From: Alphaproteobacteria bacterium
Lineage (GTDB): Bacteria; Pseudomonadota; Alphaproteobacteria; Micavibrionales; UBA2020
Direction: 5' to 3'
Length of the DNA: 64,000 nucleotides
NCBI GenBank assembly: GCA_025934695.1
Contig: JAICWS010000003.1
Span: forward strand, 186,001 to 250,000
Shown: one piece after another, positions 29,669 to 51,859 of the stretch
How the letters are laid out: every line of letters starts with the position of its first letter
Position numbering within the stretch: the stretch's first letter is position 1
The notes under the pieces: model-generated
Told to the model about the DNA's origin: nothing
The model's input: the letters and a program-made list of their open reading frames with translations, nothing else
Database searches by the model: none
Made by a program: the position numbers and the translations under genes

Positions 29669-31201
29669 TCAATTCCCGATGGTCAGGACGCCCGCCAGCA
29701 TGCCGACGATGCAGATGAAGGCCAGCATGGCGACGGCGTGGACGAGGACGGAGGACCAGATCATCACCCGCTCCTGCATCCAATTGAGACTGCGGTTGAG
29801 CTTGGTCTTCTGGCGCGTCCAGGACTGGCGGTCGAGGCGGAAGAACACATAGGTCTTCACGACCGAGCCCCAGATCTGGTTGTAGTACATCAGGAAGGGG
29901 TAATACCAGCTGAGCACCGGGCGCGAACTGTAAAGCATCAGCGTCATGATCCAGCGGGTGAAGCCGATCCAGACGAAATAGACCAGCACGAAGCTCCAGG
30001 AATGTTTGACGCCCAGGAACAGGGCGAAGGTGGGCCCGGTGAGCGAGGTCCACATGGTGACGCGCTGGTCGATGATGCACCACCAGGTGAAGAGTCCGGT
30101 GCGCGCGGGGCCAAGCGCCATGGCCTGGCCATTGATGCGCAGCATGTTGCCGAACCAGCGCAGCATGAGCTTGGAGGTCGCAAGCACGAAGTGTTTGGAC
30201 GGCGGATGTTCGACCGTGTTCACGCGCACGTCGGGCACATAAATCATGTTCATGCCCTTCTTCAGCACCCAGAACCAGGTCGACTTGTCGTCGCCGGTCA
30301 GGAACTTGAAGTAGCCGAGACGCCAATGCGTGATGGAATCGGATTCCACGTGGCGGATGAAGGCGGGGTCGGAAGCGATATCGGCGCGGAACATCGACAT
30401 GCGGCCGGTCAGCGTCAAAACCTTGCCCGAGAGCGACATCGATGACATCAGCACGTGGCGCTGCGCAAAGCGCATGCGGTGCCACTGGGTCATGACTTCG
30501 CTGCCCTCGACCTCGCAGTCCTCGTCGGTCGTGAGTGCGCCGAGATTGGGCACCGAGCGGAAGAACGGCACGCATTTGCGGATGCAGTCGCGCTCGAGCT
30601 CGCAGTCGCCGTCGACGACGGCGACGATGGAATCGGGTTCCGGCATGTCACGGGAGATGGCGCGGAAGCCCTGCGCCAGGGCGTCGCGCTTGCCCGTGCC
30701 GGGAATGCGCACGAATTTCAGCTGGACATGCGGCGGCGGATTGGCTTGGGTAAAAATCTCCTTGATGAGGAATTCATCGCACATCTCGACGATCGAGGCG
30801 ACGATGGTGCAGGGAATGCCGCAGCGAATGGCCTCGAGGACGCAGGCGCGGTAAACCTTGACCGAGGTTTCGGCCTGGATACGAAAGGACGTGACGAGCA
30901 GGTAGATATGCGGCGGCATAAGGCTTTGCCCGCCGGCATCGGCCTGCGCGCGCAGCACGGGGAAGGATATCTTGCGGTAGATCAGCGAACGGCAGAAATG
31001 GACCAAGCCCCAGGAATAGCGCCAGACGGCGAGCACGCCGATGACGGCGGCGAAGAGGACCGGGATCGGCTGGAGCGTAATGCATTGCAGCAGGGCCGCC
31101 ATCGCCGCGAGCCCCGCCGTATAAGCGGCGAACCCCGCGGCACCGGGCGGAAGAAGTCTCCGCCCGTCGCTGCGGGTTGCCTGTGTGATGGCCTGCGTCA
31201 C
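29669..31201 (-). CDS. alg8: Alginate polymerase glycosyltransferase Alg8
   Basis: A 510-residue family-2 glycosyltransferase of the inner membrane that polymerises GDP-mannuronate. It has N-terminal membrane helices, a cytoplasmic GT-A domain with VVDGDCE (D-x-D, Asp197/Asp199), GTGKRDAL and HVESDS motifs, and C-terminal helices. It starts with GTG, overlapping the algD stop as GTGA, so the two are translationally coupled. Its partner Alg44 is encoded 13 kb away in another unit. Confidence 0.95.
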   Translation of the reverse strand: MTQAITQATRSDGRRLLPPGAAGFAAYTAGLAAMAALLQCITLQPIPVLFAAVIGVLAVWRYSWGLVHFCRSLIYRKISFPVLRAQADAGGQSLMPPHIYLLVTSFRIQAETSVKVYRACVLEAIRCGIPCTIVASIVEMCDEFLIKEIFTQANPPPHVQLKFVRIPGTGKRDALAQGFRAISRDMPEPDSIVAVVDGDCELERDCIRKCVPFFRSVPNLGALTTDEDCEVEGSEVMTQWHRMRFAQRHVLMSSMSLSGKVLTLTGRMSMFRADIASDPAFIRHVESDSITHWRLGYFKFLTGDDKSTWFWVLKKGMNMIYVPDVRVNTVEHPPSKHFVLATSKLMLRWFGNMLRINGQAMALGPARTGLFTWWCIIDQRVTMWTSLTGPTFALFLGVKHSWSFVLVYFVWIGFTRWIMTLMLYSSRPVLSWYYPFLMYYNQIWGSVVKTYVFFRLDRQSWTRQKTKLNRSLNWMQERVMIWSSVLVHAVAMLAFICIVGMLAGVLTIGN

Positions 31202-32517
31202 CAGCAGATGCCCGAATAGGCACGGCGCTGTTCGCCGGTGCCGTCCTTCAGGCGCACCAGGTCGATGACGGGCAGGTTGTCGTTGGCCTGCGCCACGATC
31301 GCGCTGAAGTCCGCGCCATGATTGCCGATGATGAAGAGTTCGGCCTTTCGCAGCACGTCTTCGGGCGACGTCACGAGGCAGCGCGAGATATGCGGAATGC
31401 TCTCGGTGATATACTTCTTGTTGGCGCCCTCCATGTTCGCCGCCTGGCTCACATGCGGATCATAGATCGACAGTTCATACCCGTTGCCGATCAGCATGTC
31501 GGCCAGCGTGACAAGTGGGCTTTCGCGCAGGTCGTCGCTGCCCGCCTTGAAGGCGAGACCCAGGAGCGCGATCTTTTTTTTGCCCGATTTCTTCACCATG
31601 GCCAGGGCGCGGCGGACCTGTTCGTCGTTCGCTTCGAGGAGCGCATCGAAGATCGGTGTCTTCAGGCCTTTCGCATGGGCGCTCGCACGCAGAGCCCGCA
31701 CATCCTTGGGCAGGCAGGAGCCGCCGAAGGCGAAGCCCGGTTTCAGGTAAGCCTTGGAGATGTTGAGCTTGTTGTCGAGGCAGAAGATGTCCATGACCTT
31801 GTGGCTGTCGACGCCATGCTCTTTCATGATATTGCCGACTTCGTTGGCGAAGCCCACTTTCGCGGCATGCCAGGCATTATCCGCGTATTTCACGCCTTCG
31901 GCGACCTCGATCTCGGTCACGACTTCGGGCGCCTCGATGCCTTTGTAGAGCGTCGAGATCGCTTTGGCCGTGCGGTCGTCGAGCGCGCCGATCACGATCT
32001 TGGGCGGGTTAAAATAATCGTAGATCGCGGTGCTTTCGCGCAGGAATTCGGGGTTGTTGCCGAAGCCAAAGTCGACGCCCGCTTCCTTGCCCGAGGCTTC
32101 GGACAGGATGGGCAGCGCCACGGTGCGCGCCGTGCCCGGCACGACGGTCGAGCGCAGCACGACCGCATGCCAGCCGTCTTTCTTCGACAGCGCCACGCCG
32201 ATCTGGCGGCAGACGTCGCGGACATAATCGAGCTTCAAGGAGCCGTCTTCGTTGCTCGGCGTGCCGACGCAGATGAGCGACATATCGCTCTGCATGACGG
32301 CTTCCGCGCAGTCCTGCGTCGCCTTCAGGCGGCCGGCGGCCACGTTCTTGGAAATCATTTCATCGAGGCCGGGCTCGACGATGGGCGAGCGGCCGTCGCG
32401 GATGCATTTGACCTTCACCGGATCGGTATCGACGGCGATGACCTCGTGTCCCGAGTCGGCGATGCAGGCGCCGGCGACGGCGCCGACATAACCCAGTCCA
32501 AAGATGCTGATGCGCAT
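31198..32517 (-). CDS. algD: GDP-mannose 6-dehydrogenase AlgD
   Basis: A 439-residue enzyme that oxidises GDP-mannose to GDP-mannuronate, the committed step. The N-terminal Rossmann motif GLGYVGAVAG (7-16) binds NAD. The catalytic Cys268 (GGSCLPKD) is at the same position as in the Pseudomonas enzyme. I chose MRISIFG as start; the 15-residue extension lacks similarity. First gene of the algD-alg8 unit, divergent from algF. The 10-bp inverted repeat at 32545-32578 falls in its 5' region. Confidence 0.97.
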   Translation of the reverse strand: MRISIFGLGYVGAVAGACIADSGHEVIAVDTDPVKVKCIRDGRSPIVEPGLDEMISKNVAAGRLKATQDCAEAVMQSDMSLICVGTPSNEDGSLKLDYVRDVCRQIGVALSKKDGWHAVVLRSTVVPGTARTVALPILSEASGKEAGVDFGFGNNPEFLRESTAIYDYFNPPKIVIGALDDRTAKAISTLYKGIEAPEVVTEIEVAEGVKYADNAWHAAKVGFANEVGNIMKEHGVDSHKVMDIFCLDNKLNISKAYLKPGFAFGGSCLPKDVRALRASAHAKGLKTPIFDALLEANDEQVRRALAMVKKSGKKKIALLGLAFKAGSDDLRESPLVTLADMLIGNGYELSIYDPHVSQAANMEGANKKYITESIPHISRCLVTSPEDVLRKAELFIIGNHGADFSAIVAQANDNLPVIDLVRLKDGTGEQRRAYSGICW

Positions 32518-32544
32518 TTCGTATTGTTCTCCTGAATGTTGATG

Positions 32545-32578
32545 ATAGTGCCGGGCGTCCAAACGGCACCGGCACTAT
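32545..32578. promoter_or_regulatory. Perfect 10-bp inverted repeat between algD and algF
   Basis: ATAGTGCCGG (32545-32554) and CCGGCACTAT (32569-32578) with a 14-nt spacer. Either an operator for the divergent alginate units or a hairpin in the algD leader. Confidence 0.55.
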
Positions 32579-37652: not shown

Positions 37653-38837
37653 TTAGCCGGCGCCATCGTCCTTGCTGGTGGACTTGTCGTCGGTTGAATC
37701 GTCTTCCGCCTTGTCATGCGGCTTTTCGGGACCCTTCACGTAGATCTGGCTGTAGAGCAGCGTGATATTGCCGCCGAAGCGGCTTTGCTTCATCGGGCGG
37801 AATTCGCGCAAAGCGCTGTCCGCCTTCGGATCGTCGTAATGCTGGCGGTAGATTTCCACCCAGCCCAGATCCGAGGGCGTGCCGACATGGGTCAGGTCCT
37901 GCTCTTCGCCCGTCAGCTTCTGGAAGTAGGCTGGGTTGCCGAGGTTCTTGAGCGACACTTCGCCCAGGCGCTTGAGCGCGCTGTTGTTTTCATGGAACAG
38001 GTCGATGCCGTTGCGTTCGGCCGCGCCCGCCAGCATGAAGAGCGGCATAGCGGCAAACAGGTGATAGAGATAGGCGCGGCGCCCGCGGGCCAGTTCGGTC
38101 GGCAGGGTGCCGTCCGCCTGGATCGCATCAATGCCGAAGCGCTCCTTCTCGATCGCCCATTTGAACATGCTCTCGTCGTTCAGCGCCATACCGGCCGCGC
38201 CCACGCTCCAGGCGGCCCAGAATAGATGGTTGTTCTGGCGCGATTTCAGCTGGGCGTCGCGCGAAAAATCATCGCGCACGATATCAGACACCTGGCGCAT
38301 CCAGGCAGTGACATGTTTCTTCTTCTCGGGATCGAGCGAAGGTTCGCCCCTGATCTGCATATAGGCACTGGCGAGAGAGCCTAACAGCCATTTGCGCGTA
38401 TATTCGCCGTTCTTGTTGACGCTGCCCAGCAGCGCGCCGCCTTGAGCCCAGGTGTCGAGCCATTTGAGCACGCAGGCCGCAAGCTCGGGCCGCGGCGGAT
38501 TCGAGCGCACATAGCGGTTCGCAGTCGTTTGAAGCCCGACCTCGAAGGTGGAGGCCGGCTTGGAAGCCGCCTTATACGCCGCGTATTTTTCGGGATCGAC
38601 GACGGAGGCGCTTCCGTCTGAGTTGCTGTAGAAGCTTTCGACCTGGATATCGCGCATCGGCGCGGGCGGCGCCTCGCACGAGAAATCCTTATTGTCGAAC
38701 CTGCCGGTCTTGGCGCGTACAGCCTGCACATCGAAGGGTGGTTGCAGCCCGTACTCGTGCGCCGCATCGGCTACGCCGATGCAGGCGAGGACGGCAAGGC
38801 CGCAAACCGCGGCCAGCAGCGTTTTCTTATTCAACAT
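37653..38837 (-). CDS. algL: Periplasmic alginate lyase AlgL (PL5)
   Basis: A 394-residue protein with a signal peptide ending in GVADAA. The PL5 active site is intact: NNH (202-204, His204) and GTLPTELARGRRAYLYH (Arg251 region, Tyr256 or Tyr258). It clears alginate that stalls in the periplasm and belongs to the export complex. An acidic Lys/Asp/Ser tail (about 25 residues, KAEDDSTDDKS) is an addition over the usual length. Last gene of the alg44-A-K-E-C-L unit. Confidence 0.95.
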   Translation of the reverse strand: MLNKKTLLAAVCGLAVLACIGVADAAHEYGLQPPFDVQAVRAKTGRFDNKDFSCEAPPAPMRDIQVESFYSNSDGSASVVDPEKYAAYKAASKPASTFEVGLQTTANRYVRSNPPRPELAACVLKWLDTWAQGGALLGSVNKNGEYTRKWLLGSLASAYMQIRGEPSLDPEKKKHVTAWMRQVSDIVRDDFSRDAQLKSRQNNHLFWAAWSVGAAGMALNDESMFKWAIEKERFGIDAIQADGTLPTELARGRRAYLYHLFAAMPLFMLAGAAERNGIDLFHENNSALKRLGEVSLKNLGNPAYFQKLTGEEQDLTHVGTPSDLGWVEIYRQHYDDPKADSALREFRPMKQSRFGGNITLLYSQIYVKGPEKPHDKAEDDSTDDKSTSKDDGAG

Positions 38838-38851
38838 GAAAATCCTTAGGG

Positions 38852-40351
38852 TTAAGCGGCTTTAAGCTTCTGGTCGTAATCGCCGACCTCGGGAAAGCCG
38901 GACAGGACCTTGTCCAGCTCCGCGAACATCGCGTGCATGGCCTGTTTCGACACCGGGCTTTCGACCACGACGACGAGGGAGGGCTTGTTGGACGAGGCCC
39001 GCACGAGACCCCAAGTCCCATCGGCCAGCGTGACGCGCACGCCGTTGACGGTGACGACAGAGTCGATTTTCTGGCCGAGAATAGACGCACCGGCAGCCGC
39101 TTTCGCCTGGTAATGTTTCGTAACCTCCTCAACCACCTGGTACTTGCGGTCGTCGGGGCAGAAGGGCGACATGGTGGGCGAGCTGTGCGTGAGCGGCAGT
39201 TCGTCGCGCAACTGCGAGAGCGATTTGCCCGGATGCCGGTCCATCGTGCGGCAGACCATGACGGCGGACAGGATCCCGTCGTCGTAGCCGCGGCCCAAAG
39301 GGGCATTGAAGAAGAAATGTCCGCTCTTCTCGAAGCCCGCGAGCGCCTTGAGTTCGTTCACGCGGCGTTTGATGAAGGAATGGCCGGTCTTCCAGTAATC
39401 GGTCGAGACGCCGCGCTCTTTGAGCACCTTGTCACTGTGATAGAGGCCGGTCGATTTGACGTCGACCACGAAGGACGGGTTCTTGTGGACGGTCGCAAGA
39501 TCGCGCGCCAGCAGCACGCCGATCTTGTCGGAGAAAATTTCCTCGCCCTTGTCGTCCACGACGCCGCAGCGGTCGCCGTCGCCGTCGAAGGCGAAACCGA
39601 TATCCGCGCCCGTCTCGCGCACTTTCGCGCCGAGGGCATGGAGCATCTCGAGGTCTTCGGGATTCGGGTTGTGATGAGGGAAGGTGTAATCGAGATCACA
39701 GTGCATCGGCACCACGTCGACGCCGATGGCCGAGAGGACCTGCGGCGCATAGGCGCCGGCGGTACCATTGCCGCACGCGACCACCGCTTTCAGGTGGCGC
39801 TTGATGCGGCCGTCCTTGGCGAGGTCGGCGATATAGCGTTCCTTGATCCCGTCGACGAACTGGTAAGAGCCGCCGGTGCGCGGCACGAAGCGCTGTTCGA
39901 GCACGATGTCTTTCAGGCGCGTCATGAGCTCGGGGTTGAAGGTCAGCGTCTTTTCCGCGCCGATCTTGACGCCGGTCCAGCCGTTTTCATTGTGGCTGGC
40001 CGTCACGATGGCGACCGCCGGGCAATTGAGGTCGTATTGCGCGAAGTAAGCGACCGGCGAGAGCGCGAGGCCGATGTCCTTGACCTGGCAGCCGGCCGCG
40101 ACGAGGCCTAAGGCCATCGCATGCTTGATGGGCGCGCTGTAGGAACGGTAATCGTGCCCGACCGCGATCGTGGCAGGCGCGACTTTCAGTTCATGCAACA
40201 GCGTGCCGATGCCAAGGCCGAGGGTCTGGGCGCCGCGCAAATTGAGCTGTTCGGGAAAGAGCCAGCGGGCGTCGCATTCGCGGAAGCCCGAGGGCGCGAT
40301 CAATACGTCACGTTCGAAGGCCTCGGTATTGGCCTTGATGGCGAATGTCAT
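38852..40351 (-). CDS. algC: Phosphomannomutase/phosphoglucomutase AlgC
   Basis: A 499-residue alpha-D-phosphohexomutase converting mannose-6-P to mannose-1-P. The phosphoserine loop TASHN (Ser119) and the metal loop DGDGDR (256-261) are intact, followed by the sugar-binding and phosphate-binding domains. In Pseudomonas algC lies outside the alginate operon; here it is inside, 14 bp from algE and algL. Confidence 0.93.
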   Translation of the reverse strand: MTFAIKANTEAFERDVLIAPSGFRECDARWLFPEQLNLRGAQTLGLGIGTLLHELKVAPATIAVGHDYRSYSAPIKHAMALGLVAAGCQVKDIGLALSPVAYFAQYDLNCPAVAIVTASHNENGWTGVKIGAEKTLTFNPELMTRLKDIVLEQRFVPRTGGSYQFVDGIKERYIADLAKDGRIKRHLKAVVACGNGTAGAYAPQVLSAIGVDVVPMHCDLDYTFPHHNPNPEDLEMLHALGAKVRETGADIGFAFDGDGDRCGVVDDKGEEIFSDKIGVLLARDLATVHKNPSFVVDVKSTGLYHSDKVLKERGVSTDYWKTGHSFIKRRVNELKALAGFEKSGHFFFNAPLGRGYDDGILSAVMVCRTMDRHPGKSLSQLRDELPLTHSSPTMSPFCPDDRKYQVVEEVTKHYQAKAAAGASILGQKIDSVVTVNGVRVTLADGTWGLVRASSNKPSLVVVVESPVSKQAMHAMFAELDKVLSGFPEVGDYDQKLKAA

Positions 40352-40365
40352 GGAGGAACCTCATG

Positions 40366-41841
40366 TTAGAAGCCTATTTTCACTTCCACGAGACCACGCG
40401 TCGCCATATCTCCGTCACCGGTGCCATAAGCTTTCCCGGCCCAGAAGAAGCCGAGACTGCTTCTCAAGGTCACGTCCGTGACGCCACGAGTGGACGCCAG
40501 ATGCGCTTCCTTAAGGATATCCGTGTTGAACAGGAGGTCGATCCCCTGCCCCAGATCCTTGTGTATCCCGTCGAGGTTATTGACGAGGCCGCTCGAAGGG
40601 AGCGAGTTTGCCGCATCCGCGAGGCGGTAATAGCGGTAAATCGCGCCGACATCCGCCGCCTCAAAGACGGGCATCGTAACGCCCGCCGACAGGATATGAA
40701 TATTCGATAGCTCCGGCCGCAGAACGGTGCCGTAGTTGTCCGTGTTCTCCGTCAACGCGCCAAAGCGGCTAAAGTTCCCCGCGAGCCCATCTTGGCGGAA
40801 GGCATGGTCGGAGCCGTCCGCCGTGTTGCCGTCGCCCGAGCCATAGGCGTAGCCCAGATGGATGATAGGCTTCATGTTCGGCAGCGGCACGTCGGTCGCG
40901 GCGTCGAACGCCCAGCCGCGAACATCCTGTCCGTTAACCGCGGTGACGATGCGGTTGCTGTCGCCCGAGGGCATGGTCGTCGCCAGATCTTCATGGCCGG
41001 TGACGCCGAGGAGGTCGACGCGATAGGCGGTTTTGGCGTCACCGGTGGCGAGGAAATGCGTTTCGCCCGCGGCGCGAATGCCGCCGTAAACGAGGCTGCT
41101 GGTGCCGAGGTCGAGGTTCTGCGCGTTCTGGATGTCGCCGACCGAGACGCCGGAATGATCGTCCTGGTACATCAGTCGCGCTTCAAAGAAATTCTGGTAC
41201 CAGTATTGCCATGAAGCTTCGCCGAGCACGCGCGCGACGTCTTTGTTATTGGGATTGTTGTTGGCGCTGTCGGTGTTGTAGTCGAACAGGTTCTGCCCCG
41301 CCGCGATATTGCCGCTGAACAGCGAGGTCTGGTACAGCAGGCGCGCGGAATCGAAGTTGTTGTTCCACCACAGGCCGTAGGGCTCGCGCAGCTTCTGCCG
41401 GCCGGCGCGGAAGGTGAAAGGCTGGTTATCGAGATTGTTGAATTCGAAATAGGACTGGCGCCATTCGAGGAAGCTTTTGCCGTTCGAAATGCCGCCCGTG
41501 TCCTCGGTCTGGAAGCCGCCATTGCCGGCGGCCGCGACGCCGCGGCCTTCCCAGAAGAAGAGCGCATGCGGATTGATGTTCCAGGTGGCCTGGATTTCCG
41601 CTTCGAGAGCGGCGGTGCCGACGTTGCTGTGGTTGTTTGTGCCGAGATCGCCGTCGTTGAGATCGACGCCCTGCGCGCGAACCTCGCCGGTGACGACGAA
41701 TTTTTGTAGCGGCGCTGCCGCTGGCGTATCCCCCAGAACAGGATCAGCGGCGAACGAGACTCCGGAAAGAGAAGTGCAGGCGATCAGAAGAAAAGCGAGC
41801 GTGGCTGTGCGGCCGGAAATCGGCCAGGTCGCGGAAGTCAT
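40366..41841 (-). CDS. algE: Alginate outer-membrane porin AlgE
   Basis: A 491-residue protein with a signal peptide ending in VSFAAD. It is predicted to be an 18-strand beta-barrel that secretes alginate, with the typical FRAGRQKLREPYGLWWNNNFDSARLLY block and a C-terminal strand ending in aromatic residue F. The length equals the Pseudomonas protein. GGGGGATAGGA precedes the ATG. Confidence 0.93.
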   Translation of the reverse strand: MTSATWPISGRTATLAFLLIACTSLSGVSFAADPVLGDTPAAAPLQKFVVTGEVRAQGVDLNDGDLGTNNHSNVGTAALEAEIQATWNINPHALFFWEGRGVAAAGNGGFQTEDTGGISNGKSFLEWRQSYFEFNNLDNQPFTFRAGRQKLREPYGLWWNNNFDSARLLYQTSLFSGNIAAGQNLFDYNTDSANNNPNNKDVARVLGEASWQYWYQNFFEARLMYQDDHSGVSVGDIQNAQNLDLGTSSLVYGGIRAAGETHFLATGDAKTAYRVDLLGVTGHEDLATTMPSGDSNRIVTAVNGQDVRGWAFDAATDVPLPNMKPIIHLGYAYGSGDGNTADGSDHAFRQDGLAGNFSRFGALTENTDNYGTVLRPELSNIHILSAGVTMPVFEAADVGAIYRYYRLADAANSLPSSGLVNNLDGIHKDLGQGIDLLFNTDILKEAHLASTRGVTDVTLRSSLGFFWAGKAYGTGDGDMATRGLVEVKIGF

Positions 41842-41859: not shown

Positions 41860-43188
41860 TCAATCACTCCCGTTCGCCAGATCGTAAGCCTTGGAAATTC
41901 CTTCGGGCAGAAGTTTCTTTTCAAGGTGAGAAATCTTGACGTCGAGACCCTTGACCCCCCGTTTACGCGCAATGTACAGGCAGGTGAGGGCTTGCACGTT
42001 GTCAATGGGTCTGCCTTCTCCCTTTCTATACATTTCTGCGATTCTCTCCAAGCCTTTATAATTGCCCGTTTTTACGGCATGGCCATAATTTCCATAAGCT
42101 GAAGAGAATTCATTCTGTTTGCGCTGCACGTCACCCAGCGGCAGATAGGCCTTTTGGTTGCCGGTATCGACAGCTTTGGTGAATTCTGCTTCGGCCAGCG
42201 GCTCTTTGCCGAGGCGCGAATGGACGATGCCCAGGCTGTAATGGGCGCGGGTTTCCCCCACGCCGACGGCTTTGGCGAAGTCGTTTTCTGACAAATCGAG
42301 TTTGCCCATGTCCTGATGGAGCTTACCCATTTTGTAGTAGACCTTGGTATCGCCGGCCGCGGCGCCATGGTTGTAGTCGGCCTCGGCGACCGCGGGCTCC
42401 TGCATCTGGCGGTGGATATCGCCCATACGGTGCCAAGCCTGGACGTTGCCGCCGGTCGCGACCGTTTTGGCGAGATCGTCAACGGCGGCCGCTCCCTCGC
42501 CCTGCTGCTGGCGCAGGACGCCGCGCTGGTAATAGGCCTGGGTCTGGCCGGTGGTGATGGCAGAGCTGAAATCGCGCTCGGCCCCGGCGAGATCGTTTTC
42601 ATGCACATGCAGCTTGCCGCGCCGGTAAAAGGCCTGGGTGTCGCCGGCCGCCAGTGCCTTGGTCAGATATTCGTCGGCCAGCGGCAGGTTGCCGCGGCGC
42701 TCGGTGACCACGCCCAGCTGATACAGCGCGTTGGTGTCGCCGACTTTCAATGCCTTCTTGAAATCCGCATCCGCGTCGGCGAGCTTGTTGTCCTGCGCGT
42801 CGACCATGCCAAGCTGGTAGAGGGCATGCATGTCACCGCGCGCCAGCGCATGATTGACGAGGCCGCGCGCCTTGCCCGTGTCGACGGGTACGCCATGGCC
42901 TTCGCGATAAGCCTCGGAGAGCGCGATCATCGCGTCGGGATAGGCTTCGCCGAGCGCCTGGTTGTACATCTTCACCGCACCCGGCTGGTCGACCGGACCG
43001 CCGATGCCGGCCATCTTCATCTTGCCGAGCTTCGTCTGCGCCTCGGGGAAACCGCGGTCGGCCAACGGCTGCCAGTTCTCCTGCGCGGTTTTATAGTCGC
43101 CATGCAGATAGGCCATCTTGCCCGTTTCCATGTCGGCGCAGGCGCTGAGCAGGCACAGCGGCGCCGCGAAAAGCCACGCGTTCTTCAT
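41860..43188 (-). CDS. algK: Alginate export lipoprotein AlgK
   Basis: A 442-residue lipoprotein with a lipobox ending in Cys17 (LLSAC). The mature part is a series of TPR/Sel1-like repeats (A-x-x-x-Y-x-x-G pattern) that scaffold AlgE and AlgX. The ATG overlaps the algA stop (ATGA), so translation is coupled. I place the start there rather than in the longer frame from 43578, which shadows algA. Confidence 0.92.
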   Translation of the reverse strand: MKNAWLFAAPLCLLSACADMETGKMAYLHGDYKTAQENWQPLADRGFPEAQTKLGKMKMAGIGGPVDQPGAVKMYNQALGEAYPDAMIALSEAYREGHGVPVDTGKARGLVNHALARGDMHALYQLGMVDAQDNKLADADADFKKALKVGDTNALYQLGVVTERRGNLPLADEYLTKALAAGDTQAFYRRGKLHVHENDLAGAERDFSSAITTGQTQAYYQRGVLRQQQGEGAAAVDDLAKTVATGGNVQAWHRMGDIHRQMQEPAVAEADYNHGAAAGDTKVYYKMGKLHQDMGKLDLSENDFAKAVGVGETRAHYSLGIVHSRLGKEPLAEAEFTKAVDTGNQKAYLPLGDVQRKQNEFSSAYGNYGHAVKTGNYKGLERIAEMYRKGEGRPIDNVQALTCLYIARKRGVKGLDVKISHLEKKLLPEGISKAYDLANGSD

Positions 43189-44366
43189 GATGCGCGGCCC
43201 ATCGCCCCTGCTTCCACCGGCAGGAGCGCCGGCGGCGGCAAGGGGAATTCTTCGTTGGCGGGAATGCCGCAGACGGCTTCTTCGTTCGCGGGCAGGACGC
43301 GGGCCATTTCCTCGTAGCCGTTTTTCTTCAGCATCTTGACGAGCGAGCGCATCGATTCCGCGTCGCTGCGGTTGGCCACGAGCAGCGCGTCGCCGGTCTC
43401 GATGACGACGAGGTTTTCCACGCCCGCGCAGGCGACGAGGCGCTTGTGCGACTGGATCAGGCAATCCCTTGTCGAATGGCAGACGGCATTGCCTTCGATG
43501 ACGTTGCCCTGCTCGTCTTTCTTGCGGATCTCCCACAGCGATTCCCAGGAACCGATGTCGGACCAGGAGGGATCGCAAGGGATAACCGCGACGCGCGAGG
43601 ATTTTTCCATGATGGCCTTGTCGAAAGGCGCTTCGGGAATGGCGTTATAATGATCGTTCGCGGCGCCGTGGGCGAGCGCGGCGCGCACTTTTTCGAGGAT
43701 GCCCGGCGCATGGCGCTCATATTCCTCGAACAGCGTGCGCGCGGAGAACAAGAACATGCCGCTGTTCCAGAGGTAATTGCCGGCGGCGAGATAGCCGCGC
43801 GCGGTCGGCAGGTCGGGCTTTTCGACAAAACTGTCGGCGCGATAGACAGTGCCGCCCGGCATTTCTTCGCCGAGGCGGATATAGCCATAGCCGATCTCGG
43901 CCCGCGTGGGCTTGATGCCGAAGGTCACGAGCGCGCCTTTTTCCGCCGCGCGGCACGCCTGGCGGAAGGCCTCGCGCATTTCGGCCTCGTTGCCGATGTA
44001 ATGGTCAGCGGGCAGGATCCACAACAGGCTGTCCTCGCCAAACGCCAGCGACGCATGCACCGCGGCATAAGCGACGGCGGCGGCCGTGTTGCGGGCCGAG
44101 GGCTCACTTAAGATATTCATCGTGGCCGCGGGATCGAGGGCGGACAACTGCTCTTCGACCTTGGCCGAGAGCGCGCCCAACGTCACCGTGACGAGCTGGC
44201 CCGCATGCGCGCCCGAAATGCGCAGGGCGCGCAGCATGGTGTTCTGCAGCAGCGAGTACTTGTCGACAAGCGGCAGGAACTGCTTGGGGTGCTGCTCGCG
44301 GCTAGCGGGCCAAAGGCGCGTGCCGGAGCCGCCGCACAGGATAACAGGGATGACTTTCTGGGTCAT
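43185..44366 (-). CDS. algA: Mannose-1-phosphate guanylyltransferase (AlgA GMP domain only)
   Basis: A 393-residue enzyme making GDP-mannose. It has the nucleotidyltransferase signature LCGGSGTRLWP (10-20), SEPSARNTA and FVEKP (180-184). Usual AlgA proteins are near 480 residues and end in a cupin phosphomannose-isomerase domain. That domain is missing here; a separate cupin gene with its features lies at 45602-46099. The C-terminus is instead a Pro/Glu-rich tail. GAGGACC precedes the ATG. Confidence 0.93.
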   Translation of the reverse strand: MTQKVIPVILCGGSGTRLWPASREQHPKQFLPLVDKYSLLQNTMLRALRISGAHAGQLVTVTLGALSAKVEEQLSALDPAATMNILSEPSARNTAAAVAYAAVHASLAFGEDSLLWILPADHYIGNEAEMREAFRQACRAAEKGALVTFGIKPTRAEIGYGYIRLGEEMPGGTVYRADSFVEKPDLPTARGYLAAGNYLWNSGMFLFSARTLFEEYERHAPGILEKVRAALAHGAANDHYNAIPEAPFDKAIMEKSSRVAVIPCDPSWSDIGSWESLWEIRKKDEQGNVIEGNAVCHSTRDCLIQSHKRLVACAGVENLVVIETGDALLVANRSDAESMRSLVKMLKKNGYEEMARVLPANEEAVCGIPANEEFPLPPPALLPVEAGAMGRAS

Positions 44367-44402
44367 GGCGGTCCTCTTCTAAGGATGGATCGGGTCTTAA
44401 GC

Positions 44403-45446
44403 TTAGTGAATCGCGAAAGTAACGGTAGCGAGCCGGTTCACGTAGTCCACAGGCAGCCTCTGGTCGAGCGCGATCTTCATCGTTGCGAGGCCGTTGCCGG
44501 CGTTTGCGCCGTCGGCAAGCGGCGATTCCATGGCGATCACGCGGCCCGTATAGGGCGTGCGCGCGCCGAACACCGACACGGTCGCGACCGTGGAAGGGCC
44601 GATGCGCTTGCCCTGTGCGGGATCAAGCTGCGCCACCACCCAGGGCTTCGCGTCGACCGGCATCAGCGAGAGGAGCTTCGCGCCGGACGAAACGCTTTCG
44701 CCGCTCGCGACCTCTGTTTTCGAGATATAGCAGTTGCAGGGGCTTAAGACACTGGAAGCCGCGCCCGTGGGACCGGTGATCGTGCCGATCACCTGGTTCT
44801 GCTTCACGAAAGCAAGATCAGGGTCGAGTGCCGAGTGGAAGAAGCCCGGCGCCTGCGCGCGCACCGCAACGGCGGGACCGGCGATGGCCGCGTTGTCGGC
44901 GCGCACGAGGAACATGCTGCTATAGAGGTTCTGGCCGATGAAGGCCGTGATGAGAAAGCCCAGAAGCGCCACGATCGCAAGACCCGGCAATTGGCGGCGG
45001 AACGTGGCGGGCGCCGCGTTCTTGTTGGCCGAGGCCGGCACCTTGGTGAAATTGTTGCGCGACGCGACGTTCAGGATGCTGCCCGCCGTGACGACATCGC
45101 CCGCGATGAACGACTTGACGAACTGGTTAAGGAACGACGTCTGGCGCGCCGTCAGATTGACGAAGCGGCAGCCGACGATCCCCTTGTTGGCGACATAGTG
45201 GCGCACTTCCGCGTCGAGCGGAAGGGTGAACGAGAAAGCGTCGAACGGCATCTTCAGCTCAATGCGCAGGATCTTGCCCTTCGGGATTTCCTTGTTGACG
45301 CCGCTCAGCGAGATGCCGCCGGTGGAGAGATCCCTGACGTCGAATTCTTTGCCGTCCAGCAGGGCGCGCGAGGGAACGGTGAAGCGGACGAACTGCCGCT
45401 GGGTTTCCGACTCGTGGGTTACCTGAAGACTGGGGTTCACGTTCAT
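44403..45446 (-). CDS. alg44: Alginate polymerase c-di-GMP receptor Alg44
   Basis: A 347-residue protein with an N-terminal PilZ domain that binds c-di-GMP: RQFVR (Arg17, Arg21) and DLSTGG (39-44) are present. A transmembrane helix lies at about 153-178 and a periplasmic HlyD-like domain follows. It activates Alg8 when c-di-GMP is bound. The ATG at 45446 has AGGAG upstream. First gene of the alg44-algA-K-E-C-L unit, divergent from the cupin gene. Confidence 0.94.
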   Translation of the reverse strand: MNVNPSLQVTHESETQRQFVRFTVPSRALLDGKEFDVRDLSTGGISLSGVNKEIPKGKILRIELKMPFDAFSFTLPLDAEVRHYVANKGIVGCRFVNLTARQTSFLNQFVKSFIAGDVVTAGSILNVASRNNFTKVPASANKNAAPATFRRQLPGLAIVALLGFLITAFIGQNLYSSMFLVRADNAAIAGPAVAVRAQAPGFFHSALDPDLAFVKQNQVIGTITGPTGAASSVLSPCNCYISKTEVASGESVSSGAKLLSLMPVDAKPWVVAQLDPAQGKRIGPSTVATVSVFGARTPYTGRVIAMESPLADGANAGNGLATMKIALDQRLPVDYVNRLATVTFAIH

Positions 45447-45539
45447 TGTAATCTCCTGTTTTTTCCCGATGTGGAAAAAATAACGGGCGACTCGCGACTT
45501 CAGCAACTTTTTAATTTGCTGCAACCGCAAAAAAATTTG

Positions 45540-45564
45540 GGAACCCCTTTCATGTGCCCGAGTT
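45540..45564 (+). promoter_or_regulatory. ECF-sigma-like promoter candidate upstream of the cupin gene
   Basis: AAAAAAATTTG, then GGAAC (45540-45544), 16 bp, AGTT (45561-45564). The sequence context matches the candidate at 32622-32646. Predicted start about 30 bp before the ATG at 45602. Confidence 0.45.
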
Positions 45565-45601
45565 GGGCGGGACCAAGAAGAAACGCATCAGGAGGAGCAG
45601 T

Positions 45602-46099
45602 ATGAATACACCCACAGCAGCAATGCCCCTAAAGGCTGAGCCGCATCACGGCTATCGCGTCGACGATCAGGACGCGCGCCCGTGGGGCCACTATATAGTG
45701 ACCGCCGTCGGCAAGACGCCGCGCGGCGAGGAATACTGCGAAAAGCAGATCGTCATCAAGCCGTGGAATATCCTGTCGCTGCAGTCGCATGAGCTGCGGC
45801 GCGAGACCTGGACGGTGCGCAAGGGCACGCTGACCGCGCTCGTCGACGGCTGCCGTATCGATGCCGTTGCTGGGGAAACCATCGATGTGCCGGCGCGCGC
45901 CGTGCACTGCATGGCGAACCTTTCGGACGAGGCCTGCATCGTCCACGAGAGGCAGGAAGGCATCTGCCGCGAGGAGGACATCCGCCGCTATGTCGACGCC
46001 TATAACCGCACCACCGAAAACTCGCCCCTCGCCGCCTCTTCCGTGGCGCTTTACGGCCAGATGCTGGTCGAGATCGGGAAGGAGCGCGATGCGCATTAA
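45602..46099 (+). CDS. Stand-alone cupin, phosphomannose isomerase type II-like domain
   Basis: A 165-residue cupin matching the C-terminal PMI domain of fused AlgA/ManC proteins. ARPWGHYIV, LSLQSHELRRETWTV and VPARAVHCMAN give the metal ligands Gln61, His63, Glu68 and His102. It would supply mannose-6-P from fructose-6-P. It lies divergent from alg44, upstream of pgi, so the split AlgA and its precursor supply sit together. AGGAGGAGC precedes the ATG. Confidence 0.8.
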   Translation: MNTPTAAMPLKAEPHHGYRVDDQDARPWGHYIVTAVGKTPRGEEYCEKQIVIKPWNILSLQSHELRRETWTVRKGTLTALVDGCRIDAVAGETIDVPARAVHCMANLSDEACIVHERQEGICREEDIRRYVDAYNRTTENSPLAASSVALYGQMLVEIGKERDAH

Positions 46100-46586
46100 A
46101 ACGGCACTTTTCGCACTCATCGCCCTGCTGGCGCTGGCGCCGCACAGCGCCTTCGCCCAGGCCAAAAACACCTTCGACCTGACCCGGGCGCCGCAGTACC
46201 AAGTGTATTCGGCGCCCGAGACAGATCTGCCGATCCATATCAAGCCCGGCAAATACCAGACCGTACCTATTCCGGAGGAGCTGGGCACGGCGGTGGTGGA
46301 TGATGGCGCCTCGAAGATCACCGCCGTTCCTTACGCGAACAAGCAGGTCGCCCTCTATCCGCATGGCGAGGGCGCGGCGCACGTCACGCTTTACGGCAAG
46401 AACGGCAAGGTGCTGATGGCGCGCTATGTCGTCGTCGCGACGCCGGAAGTGAAGTACATCCGCCTGCACCGCATCTGCAAGAAGGGCCAGACCGGACAAT
46501 GCGAGAAGACGGACGTCTATTACTGCCCCAATCTTTGCTATGAGTCCCGCGTCATCAACCCGCAGGACATGATGGTTTCCAAGTAA
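46089..46586 (+). CDS. Secreted protein with secretin/pilus N-terminal-like domain
   Basis: A 165-residue protein overlapping the cupin gene by 11 bp. Signal peptide ends in SAFAQAK. IHIKPGKYQTVPIPEEL, then AVVDD and HVTLYGKNGKVLMARYVVV resemble the N-terminal region found in CpaC-type secretins (pilus formation N-terminal domain). Four cysteines in the C-terminal 30 residues (KKGQTGQCEKT to CPNLCYE) may form disulfides. It is periplasmic, but its role in an alginate locus is unclear. No secretin channel is present. Confidence 0.65.
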   Translation: MRIKTALFALIALLALAPHSAFAQAKNTFDLTRAPQYQVYSAPETDLPIHIKPGKYQTVPIPEELGTAVVDDGASKITAVPYANKQVALYPHGEGAAHVTLYGKNGKVLMARYVVVATPEVKYIRLHRICKKGQTGQCEKTDVYYCPNLCYESRVINPQDMMVSK

Positions 46587-46598
46587 GAGGATAAATCC

Positions 46599-48200
46599 AT
46601 GGACGACGTAACGCAGCTGGCCGCCTGGCAAGCGCTCGACGCCGCGCGCCGCGCGACCCCCGCCCTGAAAGACATGTTCCGCGACGACCCGGAGCGTTTT
46701 GCGAAATTTTCGGTACGCCTGCCCGGCCTGCTGGCCGATTTCTCGAAAAACCCCGTGACCGACGAGGTACGGCATTTGCTGGTCCGGCTTGCCGAGGAAG
46801 CGGGACTGGATGAAAAGCGCCGCGCCTTCTTCGCCGGCGAGAATGTCAATTCCACGGAGGACCGCCCCGCCCTGCACATGGCCCTGCGCGCGCCCGCGCA
46901 GTCCGTCCTGAAGGCGGGCGGCCAAAACGTCGTGCCCGAGGTGCACCAGACGCTGAACCGCATGCGCAGTTTTGCAGAAGCCGTGCGCTCGGGCGCATGG
47001 CACGGCCATGGCGGCCAGGAAATCACCGACATCGTCAATATTGGAATCGGCGGGTCGCACCTGGGTCCGCAACTGGCGACGGAAGCCTTGTCGTTTTATC
47101 ACCATCCGCGCCTTTCCTGCCATTATGTATCGAACGCGGATGCGTCGGACCTGGCACGGGTGCTCGCGCGCCTCTCGCCCGAAAGCACGCTGTTCATCGT
47201 CGCCTCGAAAACCTTTACCACCGCCGAGACCATGCTGAACGCCCATATCGCGCGCGATTGGGTCTTGTCGCATTACAAAGGCGATATGGAGGCCGTGAGC
47301 CGGCATTTCGCCGCCGCATCGACAAACGGGGCAGCAGTGCGCGATTTCGGCATCGCGGCGCACAATATGTTTCCTTTCGCGGACTGGGTCGGCGGACGCT
47401 ACAGCGTCTGGTCGGCCATCGGGCTGTCGACCATGATCATGGCGGGACCGGAGCGGTTCAGCGACATGCTGGCCGGCGCGAACGAAATGGACGCGCATTT
47501 CCGCACCGCGCCCTTTGAAGCCAACCTGCCCGTCATGCTGGCGCTGATCGGCATCTGGCACAGGAATTTCATGGGCTATGCCGCGCAGGCGGTCATTCCC
47601 TATCACGCGGTGCTGCGGCGCCTGCCCGCTTACCTGCAGCAGCTCGACATGGAGAGCAACGGCAAGTCGGTGACCAAAGGCGGCCATCCCGTCGCCACCG
47701 CGACCGGACCTTTGGTCTTCGGCGAGCCGGGGACGGATGCGCAGCATGTCTTCTTCCAGTGGCTGCACCAGGGCACGGATATCGCGCCGGTCGATTTCGT
47801 GGCCGCCGTCGATACGGAATTCGAAACCCCGCCCCAGCAGAAGATGCTGCTGGCCAACCTTTTGGCGCAGGCCGAAGCGCTGATGGAAGGCAACGGCGAG
47901 ACGGCCGCCCACAAGCATCACCCCGGCAACCGCCCCTCGACCATACTGCTCTTCGACCGGCTGGACGCGCAGTCGCTGGGCATGCTGATGGCGCTTTACG
48001 AGCACAAGGTCTTCGTGCAGGGCGCGATCTGGAACGTGAACAGCTTCGATCAGTGGGGCGTCAACCTCGGCAAGGCCATGGCGAAAACGCTCGAGCTGGA
48101 AATGGAAGCTGGCGTCGCGGGCCCGCATGATTCCTCGACGCGCGGGCTGCTCACCCACATCATCGCAAAAACCGGCGAACGGCTGCAGGAAGCCGCCTGA
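46599..48200 (+). CDS. pgi: Glucose-6-phosphate isomerase
   Basis: A 533-residue enzyme interconverting glucose-6-P and fructose-6-P. VNIGIGGSHLGP, SKTFTTAETM and GVNLGK-like QWGVNLGKAMA are the expected blocks. Here it would feed fructose-6-P to the PMI-like cupin and so to alginate. It lies 12 bp after the secretin-like gene and converges on the epimerase gene 4 bp away. Confidence 0.95.
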   Translation: MDDVTQLAAWQALDAARRATPALKDMFRDDPERFAKFSVRLPGLLADFSKNPVTDEVRHLLVRLAEEAGLDEKRRAFFAGENVNSTEDRPALHMALRAPAQSVLKAGGQNVVPEVHQTLNRMRSFAEAVRSGAWHGHGGQEITDIVNIGIGGSHLGPQLATEALSFYHHPRLSCHYVSNADASDLARVLARLSPESTLFIVASKTFTTAETMLNAHIARDWVLSHYKGDMEAVSRHFAAASTNGAAVRDFGIAAHNMFPFADWVGGRYSVWSAIGLSTMIMAGPERFSDMLAGANEMDAHFRTAPFEANLPVMLALIGIWHRNFMGYAAQAVIPYHAVLRRLPAYLQQLDMESNGKSVTKGGHPVATATGPLVFGEPGTDAQHVFFQWLHQGTDIAPVDFVAAVDTEFETPPQQKMLLANLLAQAEALMEGNGETAAHKHHPGNRPSTILLFDRLDAQSLGMLMALYEHKVFVQGAIWNVNSFDQWGVNLGKAMAKTLELEMEAGVAGPHDSSTRGLLTHIIAKTGERLQEAA

Positions 48201-48204
48201 AGCG

Positions 48205-51200
48205 TTAAGCGACCAGATAGCCCCCCGACAGCATCGTGGCGGGGTCGAAGCTGGACGTTCCCTGTAACAGCACGAGATTGACGAAGTGCGCGCCATTGGC
48301 GGCGCCGTCCGCATCGACGGACAGGATGGTGCCCGTAGCCGTTTTTGTCGCGTGCAGGAAATCCGTGATATTGTCCCCCGGCTGGTAGCTGATGATATTT
48401 GAAATGTCGATCTTGTCGCCGTTCCCGGTGTGGAAGTCGGTGATGGTGTTGAGGTTTCCGCTCACGGTTGTGAACTGGAACACGTCGGCCCCGCCGCCGC
48501 CCGTCATGGTGGCGGTGCCAGCGCCCGCGACCAGCAGGTCGCTGCCGTTGTCGCCAAAGAGCGTGTCATTCCCGGTCCCGGCATACAGCGTGTCGTTGTC
48601 GTCATTGCCGTGCAGCAGGTTGTTGCCCGTCCCCGCATAAAGAACGTCATCGCCCGTGTTGCCCGACAGCGTGTCGTTCCCGTCATCGCCGTAGACCGTA
48701 TCATTGCCGCTGCCGGCGCTGATCGTATCGTTGCCGCCGAGACCGTGGATCGTATCGTTCCCGCTGCCGCTGGTGATGATGTCGTCGCCATCGGTGCCCG
48801 CGGTGCCCGTGATCGGCACCTTGACCGAGATGGAGACGGTTCCGGTCGCAGAGGCGCCGCTGCTGTCCTGCAGCGTATAGGTGAAGCTGTCGCTGCCCGT
48901 GAAGCCCGTGACGGGCGTATAGGTGAAGTCCCCCGCCGCCGTCAGCGCCACGCTGCCGCCGGCCGCCGTCACGAGGTTGGCCGCCACGGTGGAAAGGGCA
49001 AGCCCTTCGGGTGACATGTCGGCGCCGCTGCCATTGTCGGTCAGCACGTTGCCGTGAAGCACCTGGTTTTCGGTATCGGCGAAGGAGTCGGGTTCGGCGA
49101 CGGGCGGGCCGCTGGTCGGCGGCGGCGTCACGGTCACCGCGTAGCCCGCGGGGAAGAGCGTGACGAGATTGTGCGTCACATCGAAGGATGCCGCGCTGAC
49201 GCCCGTGAGATCTTCAAGAGCAACAGGCGCCGCCGGTCCCGCCGCGCCGTCGGGATCGAAGGAGACGATGGTATCGGCGCCGACTTGAGCGATCGTTATA
49301 TAACCCGCCCCTACCGCATCTGTTCCCGTATAACCGTCGGCCCGCAACAGGGCGCTGACGTCGAGGATGTCGCCGCCCGCGCCGGTCTGGAAGTCAGTGA
49401 TTGTGTCGACGATATGCGACGCGGTGCCTGCCTCGACCGCCTTGACGTCGTTGAGTTCGCCGGGATGGACGTAGAAGGTGTCGCTGCCTGCGCCGCCCGT
49501 CAGCGTATCGCTGCCGCCCCCGCCGACGATGACATCGTTGCCAGCCCCGCCAGAGAGCGTATCGTTGGCCGTGGTCCCGGTGATGATATTGTTCTGGCCG
49601 TCGCCCGTCACGGTCACGCCGGGGCCGCCGAAAATCGTGAGATCAGCCAGATCGCGCACCGGATAATTTCCCGGGTTTTCGAGGATGTGCGTCTGGCCCA
49701 TGTCGAGATCGATGAAGTTGGACAGGCGATCGCCTGCGACCTCCTGCGAATCCGGCGCCAGATGCCAGGGATCGGTCGTCCAGGATGATGACCAGCCGGG
49801 CGTTGACGAAGGTTCGTCGGCGCGCATCGGTAGGTCGGCATAATTGACCGCCAGATGGATGTTGGAATAGGCGAGCGCCATCTTCTCCTGCGCATCGTCA
49901 ACGTGGGCGAGGCCCAAGTCCTCCTTGGCGATGGTCGCCTGCGTATAGCCCGCGGCGGTCGCGCCCGTCGTGTTGAAATTGCCTGTTTCCATCAAGTAGA
50001 ACTGGATATTCGGATCCACGTTCTTCTCGAGGTAATTGAAGACGGCCAGCGTTTCATTGATGTAACGCTGTTCGGCGGCGGCGCGGCTTGCCTCGGATGA
50101 TCCGCCACCCAACTGGTTGGCCTCGGCCTCGCCCTGCGACCAGATGACGATCGGCGTCACGGGACCTTGCGTGGCCAGTTCGGCAAGCTGGTGCTGCATC
50201 TGGTCCGCGGCCGCCAGCAGCGCGGGACCGGCCTTGTTTTCGACCGGATACCACCAGACCTTGGACGGATCCTGGCTCGTGCCGCCACGGTCGCCATCGA
50301 CGGTCGAATCCCCCACCGCCATATTCGCAAGGGTAACGACCTGCGCGTAATTCGTCTGCTGCCGCAGGCCGGTTTCAATGTGGGAAATGCCGGTGCCGTT
50401 GTCGACGGGGTTCGTGGTGATCATCAGCTCCGCATTCGACTGGCCGAGCAGCGGCGCATAGAGCGTCTTCGGCGCGTTCGGGTCGGTGGAGGGCGTCAGG
50501 CTGGAAAGCGCGGGTTCGGTGAAGGTCGAATGGGAGCCGGAAAGAATCGGCATATCCTGGTTCGTGCCGTAGATGGTATTGTCGGAGACCGTCGTATTAT
50601 CCGTGCTGCCGTCCGCCGCCTCTTCCACACTGGCGCCGGCGCGCACCGGACCGAAGTCGTCGATAGTGTTGTTGGTAATCTGGGTGCCCGTCGTTGTGTA
50701 TATCTGGCCGGAGACACCCGTCGTGTCGTTATAGGATTCGACGCGGATTTCGGCGTATTCGCCGTTCTTCTTCTGCGAGTCGTCGAAAATATGGCTGTTC
50801 TCGATGATGCTGCCCGTGCTGCCCATGATATGGACGCCCTGTTGCCCATTGTCATGGATCGAGACGCCGTTCAGCGTGACGGTATTGGCCTTGTTGATCT
50901 GTACGCCGTCGAGCGCGTTGGCATAAACGCTGCCGCCGTTGATCGTGATGTTCTGCGGCACCGGGATATTGTCGCTGCCGCGCTGCACCATAATGCCCTC
51001 GCCGCCGTTGCCATAGGCGGTGCAATTCGTCAGCGTATCATCATGCGAGGAGGTGACGATGTTGAAACCGTGGCGGCCGTTGCCGTAGGCTGTGTCGTTG
51101 GAAAGATGGGCGCCGATCTGGAAATCCAGCGTGAATCCGTCAAGCCCGTTGCCGTGGCTGACGCAGTTGGTGATGGAAAGATTGGTCGTTTCCTCATGTG

Positions 51201-51666
51201 GGTCGAAACCATAGCCCGAGCAGTTCTTTATTTCGACATGGTCAAGCGTGATATTCGTGTCGGTCCCCGGGCCGCCGGGCGTGACGCCATTGAACCAGCC
51301 GTCGATCTTGCCGCTGGACTGATTGGCGCGGTTGCCGTCGACGGTCAGGTCATGCATGCCGATGTCGTGATTCTGCACGCCCGCCTGGTCGCGGAAGATA
51401 CCGGAGAGACTATGGTTGTAATTATCAGCCAGCTTGACCGTCGTCGCGCCCATGCCGTCGCCGTAGACGGTGATATTGTCGTAAAGCATGATCGCCCCGT
51501 GCGAGGCCGTGCCGTCGCCGGTGACAATATAAGTCCCCGCCGGGATATAGACCTGCCCGCCGCCCGCCGCATGGGCCGCATTGACCGCCGCCTGGATGGC
51601 AGAAGTGTCGTTCGCGACGCCATCGCCTTTGGCGCCATAATCCTTGACGTTGAATATGCCGCTCAT
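48205..51666 (-). CDS. Secreted mannuronan C5-epimerase fused to an SGNH/SASA esterase, with RTX repeats
   Basis: A 1153-residue protein. Residues 1-385 form an AlgE-type epimerase A-module: FNVKDYGAKGDG start, catalytic YGFDPHEE (Tyr152, Asp155, His157) and GRHGFNIV (Arg198). Residues 400-650 are a SASA/SGNH carbohydrate-esterase domain: GQSN (408-411, Ser410), WSQGE (509-513) and DPWHL (Asp632, His635). An RTX block (about 685-720), a cadherin-like VCBS-type module (about 865-975) and a second RTX block (about 985-1080) follow, then a type I secretion tail. From memory, Pseudomonas syringae PsmE has this combination. It converges on pgi. Confidence 0.9.
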   Translation of the reverse strand: MSGIFNVKDYGAKGDGVANDTSAIQAAVNAAHAAGGGQVYIPAGTYIVTGDGTASHGAIMLYDNITVYGDGMGATTVKLADNYNHSLSGIFRDQAGVQNHDIGMHDLTVDGNRANQSSGKIDGWFNGVTPGGPGTDTNITLDHVEIKNCSGYGFDPHEETTNLSITNCVSHGNGLDGFTLDFQIGAHLSNDTAYGNGRHGFNIVTSSHDDTLTNCTAYGNGGEGIMVQRGSDNIPVPQNITINGGSVYANALDGVQINKANTVTLNGVSIHDNGQQGVHIMGSTGSIIENSHIFDDSQKKNGEYAEIRVESYNDTTGVSGQIYTTTGTQITNNTIDDFGPVRAGASVEEAADGSTDNTTVSDNTIYGTNQDMPILSGSHSTFTEPALSSLTPSTDPNAPKTLYAPLLGQSNAELMITTNPVDNGTGISHIETGLRQQTNYAQVVTLANMAVGDSTVDGDRGGTSQDPSKVWWYPVENKAGPALLAAADQMQHQLAELATQGPVTPIVIWSQGEAEANQLGGGSSEASRAAAEQRYINETLAVFNYLEKNVDPNIQFYLMETGNFNTTGATAAGYTQATIAKEDLGLAHVDDAQEKMALAYSNIHLAVNYADLPMRADEPSSTPGWSSSWTTDPWHLAPDSQEVAGDRLSNFIDLDMGQTHILENPGNYPVRDLADLTIFGGPGVTVTGDGQNNIITGTTANDTLSGGAGNDVIVGGGGSDTLTGGAGSDTFYVHPGELNDVKAVEAGTASHIVDTITDFQTGAGGDILDVSALLRADGYTGTDAVGAGYITIAQVGADTIVSFDPDGAAGPAAPVALEDLTGVSAASFDVTHNLVTLFPAGYAVTVTPPPTSGPPVAEPDSFADTENQVLHGNVLTDNGSGADMSPEGLALSTVAANLVTAAGGSVALTAAGDFTYTPVTGFTGSDSFTYTLQDSSGASATGTVSISVKVPITGTAGTDGDDIITSGSGNDTIHGLGGNDTISAGSGNDTVYGDDGNDTLSGNTGDDVLYAGTGNNLLHGNDDNDTLYAGTGNDTLFGDNGSDLLVAGAGTATMTGGGGADVFQFTTVSGNLNTITDFHTGNGDKIDISNIISYQPGDNITDFLHATKTATGTILSVDADGAANGAHFVNLVLLQGTSSFDPATMLSGGYLVA

Positions 51667-51859
51667 GAGGGACCGCTCCGTTCAACCGTTAATTCAGGCA
51701 CAGCCACCCGTTAACTAGCCGTAGCTGTTTACGTTCCGGATGGTGCACCCCCCGTACGCCTTTTGCGCCGCCCCTGTCCCTTTTGAACGCCGGAACAACT
51801 ATCGCCGAAGGCCAGTTGTATCTCGAGTTCAAATCAAACCACGTCACAGGGAGCTACAA

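What the first reader, a model, noticed from the sequence alone, without database searches (positions are those of the whole stretch)
43185..46099. Split AlgA: GMP-only gene plus stand-alone PMI-like cupin
Fused AlgA/ManC proteins join a guanylyltransferase to a cupin phosphomannose isomerase. Here the algA product stops at 393 residues with a tail, and a 165-residue cupin with the matching metal ligands is a separate gene 1.2 kb away on the other strand. The cupin is followed by pgi, so the first two steps of supply are together. This could be gene fission, or the ancestral state.
Basis: partly seen in the sequence, partly recalled or inferred. Interest (0 to 1): 0.6.

Follow-up and report, generated by a model that had tools for sequence, protein, structure and literature searches.

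The report
Alginate enzyme AlgA, isomerase moved out
In this bacterium's alginate gene cluster the usually two-in-one enzyme AlgA has lost its isomerase half, and a separate, older relative of that half stands next to it and very probably does the job; related bacteria show the lost half in several stages of decay.

Summary
The window carries an alginate cluster of a Micavibrionales-type alphaproteobacterium. Its AlgA-type gene (43185-44366, -) encodes only the guanylyltransferase (GMP), and a 165-aa phosphomannose-isomerase (PMI) type cupin (45602-46099, +) stands 1.2 kb away across alg44. Two corrections: one 165-aa gene lies between cupin and pgi, and the genome holds a second stand-alone PMI cupin beside a fructokinase-type ROK gene. 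Both reader explanations fail. Fission: the cupin falls in a stand-alone clade; grouping it with AlgA cupin domains is rejected (p-AU 0.015). Ancestral state: the GMP gene nests in a clade that also holds intact fused AlgAs and AlgAs whose C-terminal cupin is eroded (1-6 of 11 key residues left; intact 10-11). Best reading: a pre-existing stand-alone cupin supplies PMI in trans, and AlgA's own PMI domain decayed and was lost several times. No type I, AGE-type or bifunctional PGI/PMI was found in the genome. PMI activity is inferred, not shown; five relatives with a lost or eroded domain have no recognisable PMI. Stand-alone cupin PMIs and GMP-only ManC are known, so this is a new variant of a known kind.

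The parts
43185..44366 (-). AlgA/ManC-type mannose-1-phosphate guanylyltransferase without the C-terminal PMI cupin domain (393 aa)
   Evidence: PF00483, PF22640, TIGR01479 positions 1-353 only; only such gene in the genome
45602..46099 (+). stand-alone PMI-type (type II) cupin, 165 aa; K48, Q61, H63, R66, E68, W70, H102, N106, E116 kept
   Evidence: PF01050 47.5 bits; AlphaFold2 pLDDT 92; best structural match 7zvm/7zvy, Thermococcus PMIs, Z 14.4/14.3
46089..46586 (+). 165-aa protein with a signal-like N-terminus, overlapping the cupin's end by 11 bases; weak pilus-formation N-terminal-like match; a 27%-identical relative lies in another alginate cluster (L140)
46599..48200 (+). glucose-6-phosphate isomerase (pgi), a second copy beside another on contig C7
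   Evidence: PF00342 630.5 bits
44403..45452 (-). Alg44-like (PilZ + HlyD-like) between GMP gene and cupin
41860..43191 (-). AlgK-like TPR/Sel1 lipoprotein; start overlaps the GMP stop (ATGA)
40366..41841 (-). alginate export porin (PF13372)
38852..40351 (-). phosphomannomutase/phosphoglucomutase (AlgC role)
37653..38837 (-). alginate lyase (PF05426)
31198..32562 (-). nucleotide-sugar dehydrogenase (AlgD role)
29669..31201 (-). family 2 glycosyltransferase (Alg8 role)
   Evidence: PF13641

Best explanation
The 165-aa cupin is a monofunctional type II phosphomannose isomerase that turns fructose-6-phosphate into mannose-6-phosphate for alginate. PGI, cupin PMI, PMM, GMP and AlgD then make GDP-mannuronate from genes of one cluster. 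It is not a piece of AlgA: it belongs to an older stand-alone family that in this order also sits beside fructokinase-type ROK kinases, PMM and GMP genes. Where such a cupin supplies PMI, the PMI domain of the fused AlgA becomes dispensable, erodes and is lost, leaving GMP-only AlgA. Shown: gene anatomy, clade membership, erosion series, absence of other known PMI families. Inferred: the enzymatic activity, and that redundancy caused the loss.
For: Genome has no type I PMI, no PF07221, no PF10432; type I PMI is absent from all 143 relatives searched. All 49 order-level stand-alones keep 10-11 of 11 key residues; 11 eroded AlgA domains keep 1-6. 39 of 49 stand-alones lie within 5 kb of GMP, PMM, PGI or ROK genes. 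In the window and five relatives (G082, G035, G080, G135, G049) the cupin lies divergent from alg44 in the alginate cluster. Predicted fold best matches two Thermococcus stand-alone PMIs. Cupin tree: 48-row stand-alone clade at 97%; grouping with AlgA domains rejected, p-AU 0.0146 and 0.0029. GMP tree: window gene inside a 99% clade of fused, eroded and GMP-only AlgAs. Domain lost/eroded goes with presence of a stand-alone: 21 v 6 against 1 v 6, Fisher p 0.004.
Against: No assay. Five genomes (G061, G081, G115, G025, G125) have a truncated or eroded AlgA and no recognisable PMI, so loss does not always need a stand-alone cupin. The Fisher test ignores kinship; there are only 2 independent pairs on well-supported branches, which cannot reach significance. 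The C1 cupin could supply all PMI activity. The cupin tree has only 112 columns. Thermococcus PMIs lead other cupins only slightly in Z.
Confidence: 0.75

Rival explanations
1. Gene fission: AlgA broke and its cupin half became a separate gene nearby.
For: Both halves lie 1.2 kb apart in one cluster.
Against: The cupin does not group with AlgA domains (p-AU 0.0146; 0.0029 for all GMP-linked stand-alones); the stand-alone family has its own residues (C103, M104, C122); some genomes carry the stand-alone beside an AlgA/ManC that still has an intact, broken or eroded cupin.
Confidence: 0.05
2. Ancestral state: separate GMP and cupin genes from before the fusion.
For: Stand-alone PMI cupins occur in other alphaproteobacteria and archaea.
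Against: The GMP gene nests among fused AlgAs and AlgAs with eroded cupin remnants; a remnant shows that fusion came first in this clade.
Confidence: 0.07
3. The C1 stand-alone cupin (next to the ROK kinase) is the PMI of the cell, and the window cupin has another or only a regulatory role.
For: C1 scores much higher against PF01050 (87 v 48 bits) and keeps QSHEHRREHW; the window copy has QSHELRRETW.
Against: The differing positions also vary in other stand-alones, and the first also in outside fused proteins; all 11 key residues are kept; the cupin is a steady part of alginate clusters in several genera.
Confidence: 0.13

Closest known systems
Fused AlgA/ManC (type II PMI-GMP, TIGR01479)
   Same: GMP domain with beta-helix, and a PMI-type cupin with the Q-x-H-x4-E ... 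H motif; same pathway
   Different: Here the two activities are on separate genes on opposite strands, and the cupin is of a different clade from AlgA's own domain
Stand-alone cupin PMI of Thermococcus (7zvm, 7zvy)
   Same: Single-domain cupin, nearest solved fold (Z 14.4)
   Different: Window protein has a C-terminal helix (142-164), only 16-18% identity, and sits in an alginate cluster
Monofunctional GMP (e.g. SCO4238 of Streptomyces coelicolor, PMC5982138)
   Same: GMP activity without PMI
   Different: Here derived by loss from a fused alginate AlgA

Membership tests
Fused GMP_PMI (AlgA/ManC, TIGR01479 equivalog) | both domains on one chain, 467 positions | tested here: not met
   Positions 1-353 only in the GMP gene; 345-466 in the separate cupin. 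The GMP gene nevertheless passes the bit cut-off (376 v 373)
Mannose-1-phosphate guanylyltransferase | NTP_transferase domain, GGSGTRLWP...PKQ signature, FVEKP, beta-helix | tested here: met
Type II PMI cupin (PF01050) | score above curated cut-off | tested here: met
   47.5 v 23.6 bits
Type II PMI cupin (PF01050) | metal ligands equivalent to type I Gln/His/Glu/His | tested here: met
   Q61, H63, E68, H102, invariant in 28 relatives; ligand types from PMC3765361; equivalence by motif alignment, not by a bound-metal structure
Type II PMI cupin (PF01050) | mannose-6-phosphate/fructose-6-phosphate isomerase activity | not testable with these tools
   needs an enzyme assay
Alginate biosynthesis cluster | alg8, alg44, algK, algE, algG, algX, algL and algC/A/D homologues together | tested here: met
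   several components score below NCBIfam equivalog cut-offs

The most novel reading that the evidence does not exclude
In Micavibrionales a fused biosynthetic enzyme is being undone again and again: a stand-alone cupin that does not descend from the fused domain takes over the isomerase step, and the fused domain decays through visible intermediates; in some species alginate is made with no known PMI at all.
Probability: 0.5. Interest if true: 0.55.

Novelty: new variant of a known kind. Interest (0 to 1): 0.4.

Why it matters
Fused enzymes are usually thought to stay fused. A clade that holds intact, broken, eroded and absent copies of one domain, alongside a trans-acting substitute, allows direct tests of why fusions are kept or lost. 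The genomes with no recognisable PMI point to a missing enzyme or a different sugar source.

Tried and rejected
First thought the cupin was degenerate because 'HxH' reads HEL and 'EHW' reads ETW; rejected, since the cupin motif spacing puts the ligands at Q-x-H-x4-E and those positions are invariant, while the others vary. Sequence search of solved structures with the window cupin found nothing, and profile or archaeal queries did not reach 7zvm by sequence, so the residue-by-residue match to that PMI was not checked. A broad alignment could not be used for the genome-contig scan; a narrower one could. The independent-pairs test had too few pairs. No sigma-70-like promoters or terminators were found between 44300 and 46700. 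Paper searches found no account of split AlgA or of Micavibrio alginate synthesis in the titles and abstracts listed from the held library.

Full report
What is there. The window is contig C5:186001-250000 of a 4.1 Mb genome. Record titles of the closest loci read Micavibrio sp. or Alphaproteobacteria bacterium. Around the finding lies an alginate cluster: AlgD- and Alg8-role genes, MBOAT acetyltransferase, AlgX- and AlgG-like genes, alginate lyase, phosphomannomutase, export porin, AlgK-like protein, GMP, Alg44-like protein, and, divergently, cupin, a small protein and pgi.

The two genes. The AlgA-type gene has the nucleotidyltransferase and beta-helix domains and matches only positions 1-353 of the 467-position fused family. 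Its stop overlaps the algK start, so the truncation is clean. The cupin is 165 aa with a strong ribosome site; it matches the other end of the fused family. It overlaps the next gene by 11 bases, and pgi follows 12 bases later, which suggests one operon (no promoter or terminator pattern found).

Other isomerases in the genome. There is one GMP gene and two PMI-type cupins; the second, on C1, is 52% identical to the window cupin over 147 residues and sits directly before a ROK kinase nearest the fructokinase model. No type I PMI, AGE-type or bifunctional PGI/PMI was found. There is a second PGI on C7. So the alginate cluster seems to own its own copy of both isomerases (inference).

Relatives. 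Of 143 genomes, 71 match the cupin, 119 match the fused family and none has a type I PMI. Reading 49 stand-alone cupin loci, 39 lie within 5 kb of GMP, PMM, PGI or ROK genes. In G082, G035, G080, G135 and G049 the cupin lies divergent from alg44, as in the window. The AlgA of these clusters is either cut short, or keeps a C-terminal cupin that has lost the QxH....E motif. Counting 11 residues invariant or nearly so in the stand-alone alignment, eroded domains keep 1-6, all others 10-11. Intermediates exist: G088 has a fused domain with the last ligand His changed to Tyr and a stand-alone cupin beside it.

History. In the cupin tree the stand-alones of the order form a 97% group, apart from AlgA domains; eroded domains fall among alginate AlgAs. 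Forcing the window cupin, or all GMP-linked stand-alones, together with AlgA domains is rejected (p-AU 0.0146 and 0.0029). The GMP-linked set was named by gene neighbourhood, but the tests were run after the tree had been seen. In the GMP tree the window gene lies in a 99% clade with intact fused, eroded and GMP-only members mixed, with its closest kin G013 also GMP-only. Loss of a fused domain is the simplest account, several times over; the trees are unrooted and only partly resolved.

Does the stand-alone explain the loss? Among 34 alginate-type AlgAs, 21 of 27 with a lost, broken or eroded domain come from genomes with a stand-alone cupin, against 1 of 7 with an intact domain (Fisher p 0.004). 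This ignores kinship, and the pair test has no power. G047 has no stand-alone but an intact fused ManC elsewhere. Five genomes have no PMI that I can recognise; one is only 81% complete. They weaken the causal step.

Mechanism. The predicted structure (pLDDT 92) is a cupin barrel plus a C-terminal helix; the best solved matches are the stand-alone PMIs of two Thermococcus species. Zinc in type I PMI is held by Gln, His, Glu, His (PMC3765361); the same four types stand at the cupin motif positions here. PMI activity therefore is likely but not shown.

Verdict.

Noticed in passing
G000 contig C1 215414-215887 (L006 9915-10388, -): Second stand-alone PMI cupin directly upstream of a ROK kinase close to the fructokinase (NF007108) model; the pair recurs in many relatives.
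   Followed up: partly
G061 (L142), G081 (L143), G115 (L141), G025 (L132), G125 (L133): Truncated or eroded AlgA and no type I, cupin or AGE-type PMI found; the source of mannose-6-phosphate is unknown.
   Followed up: partly
window 46089-46586: Small protein with a signal-like N-terminus between cupin and pgi, weakly like the pilus formation N-terminal region; a distant relative lies in the alginate cluster of G013 (L140).
   Followed up: partly
L167 3305-4932: A record labelled Cytophagales carries a GMP-only gene and a divergent stand-alone cupin like those of the Micavibrionales, next to plasmid-like ParA and replication-type genes; mis-binning or transfer.
   Followed up: no
window 48205-51666 and 51740-55078: Two large RTX-repeat proteins flank the cluster; the first has a pectate-lyase/epimerase-like N-terminal part, as in secreted AlgE-type mannuronan epimerases.
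   Followed up: no
stand-alone cupins of the order: Shared cysteines C46, C103 and C122 (window cupin numbering), largely absent in fused domains; their role is unknown.
   Followed up: no
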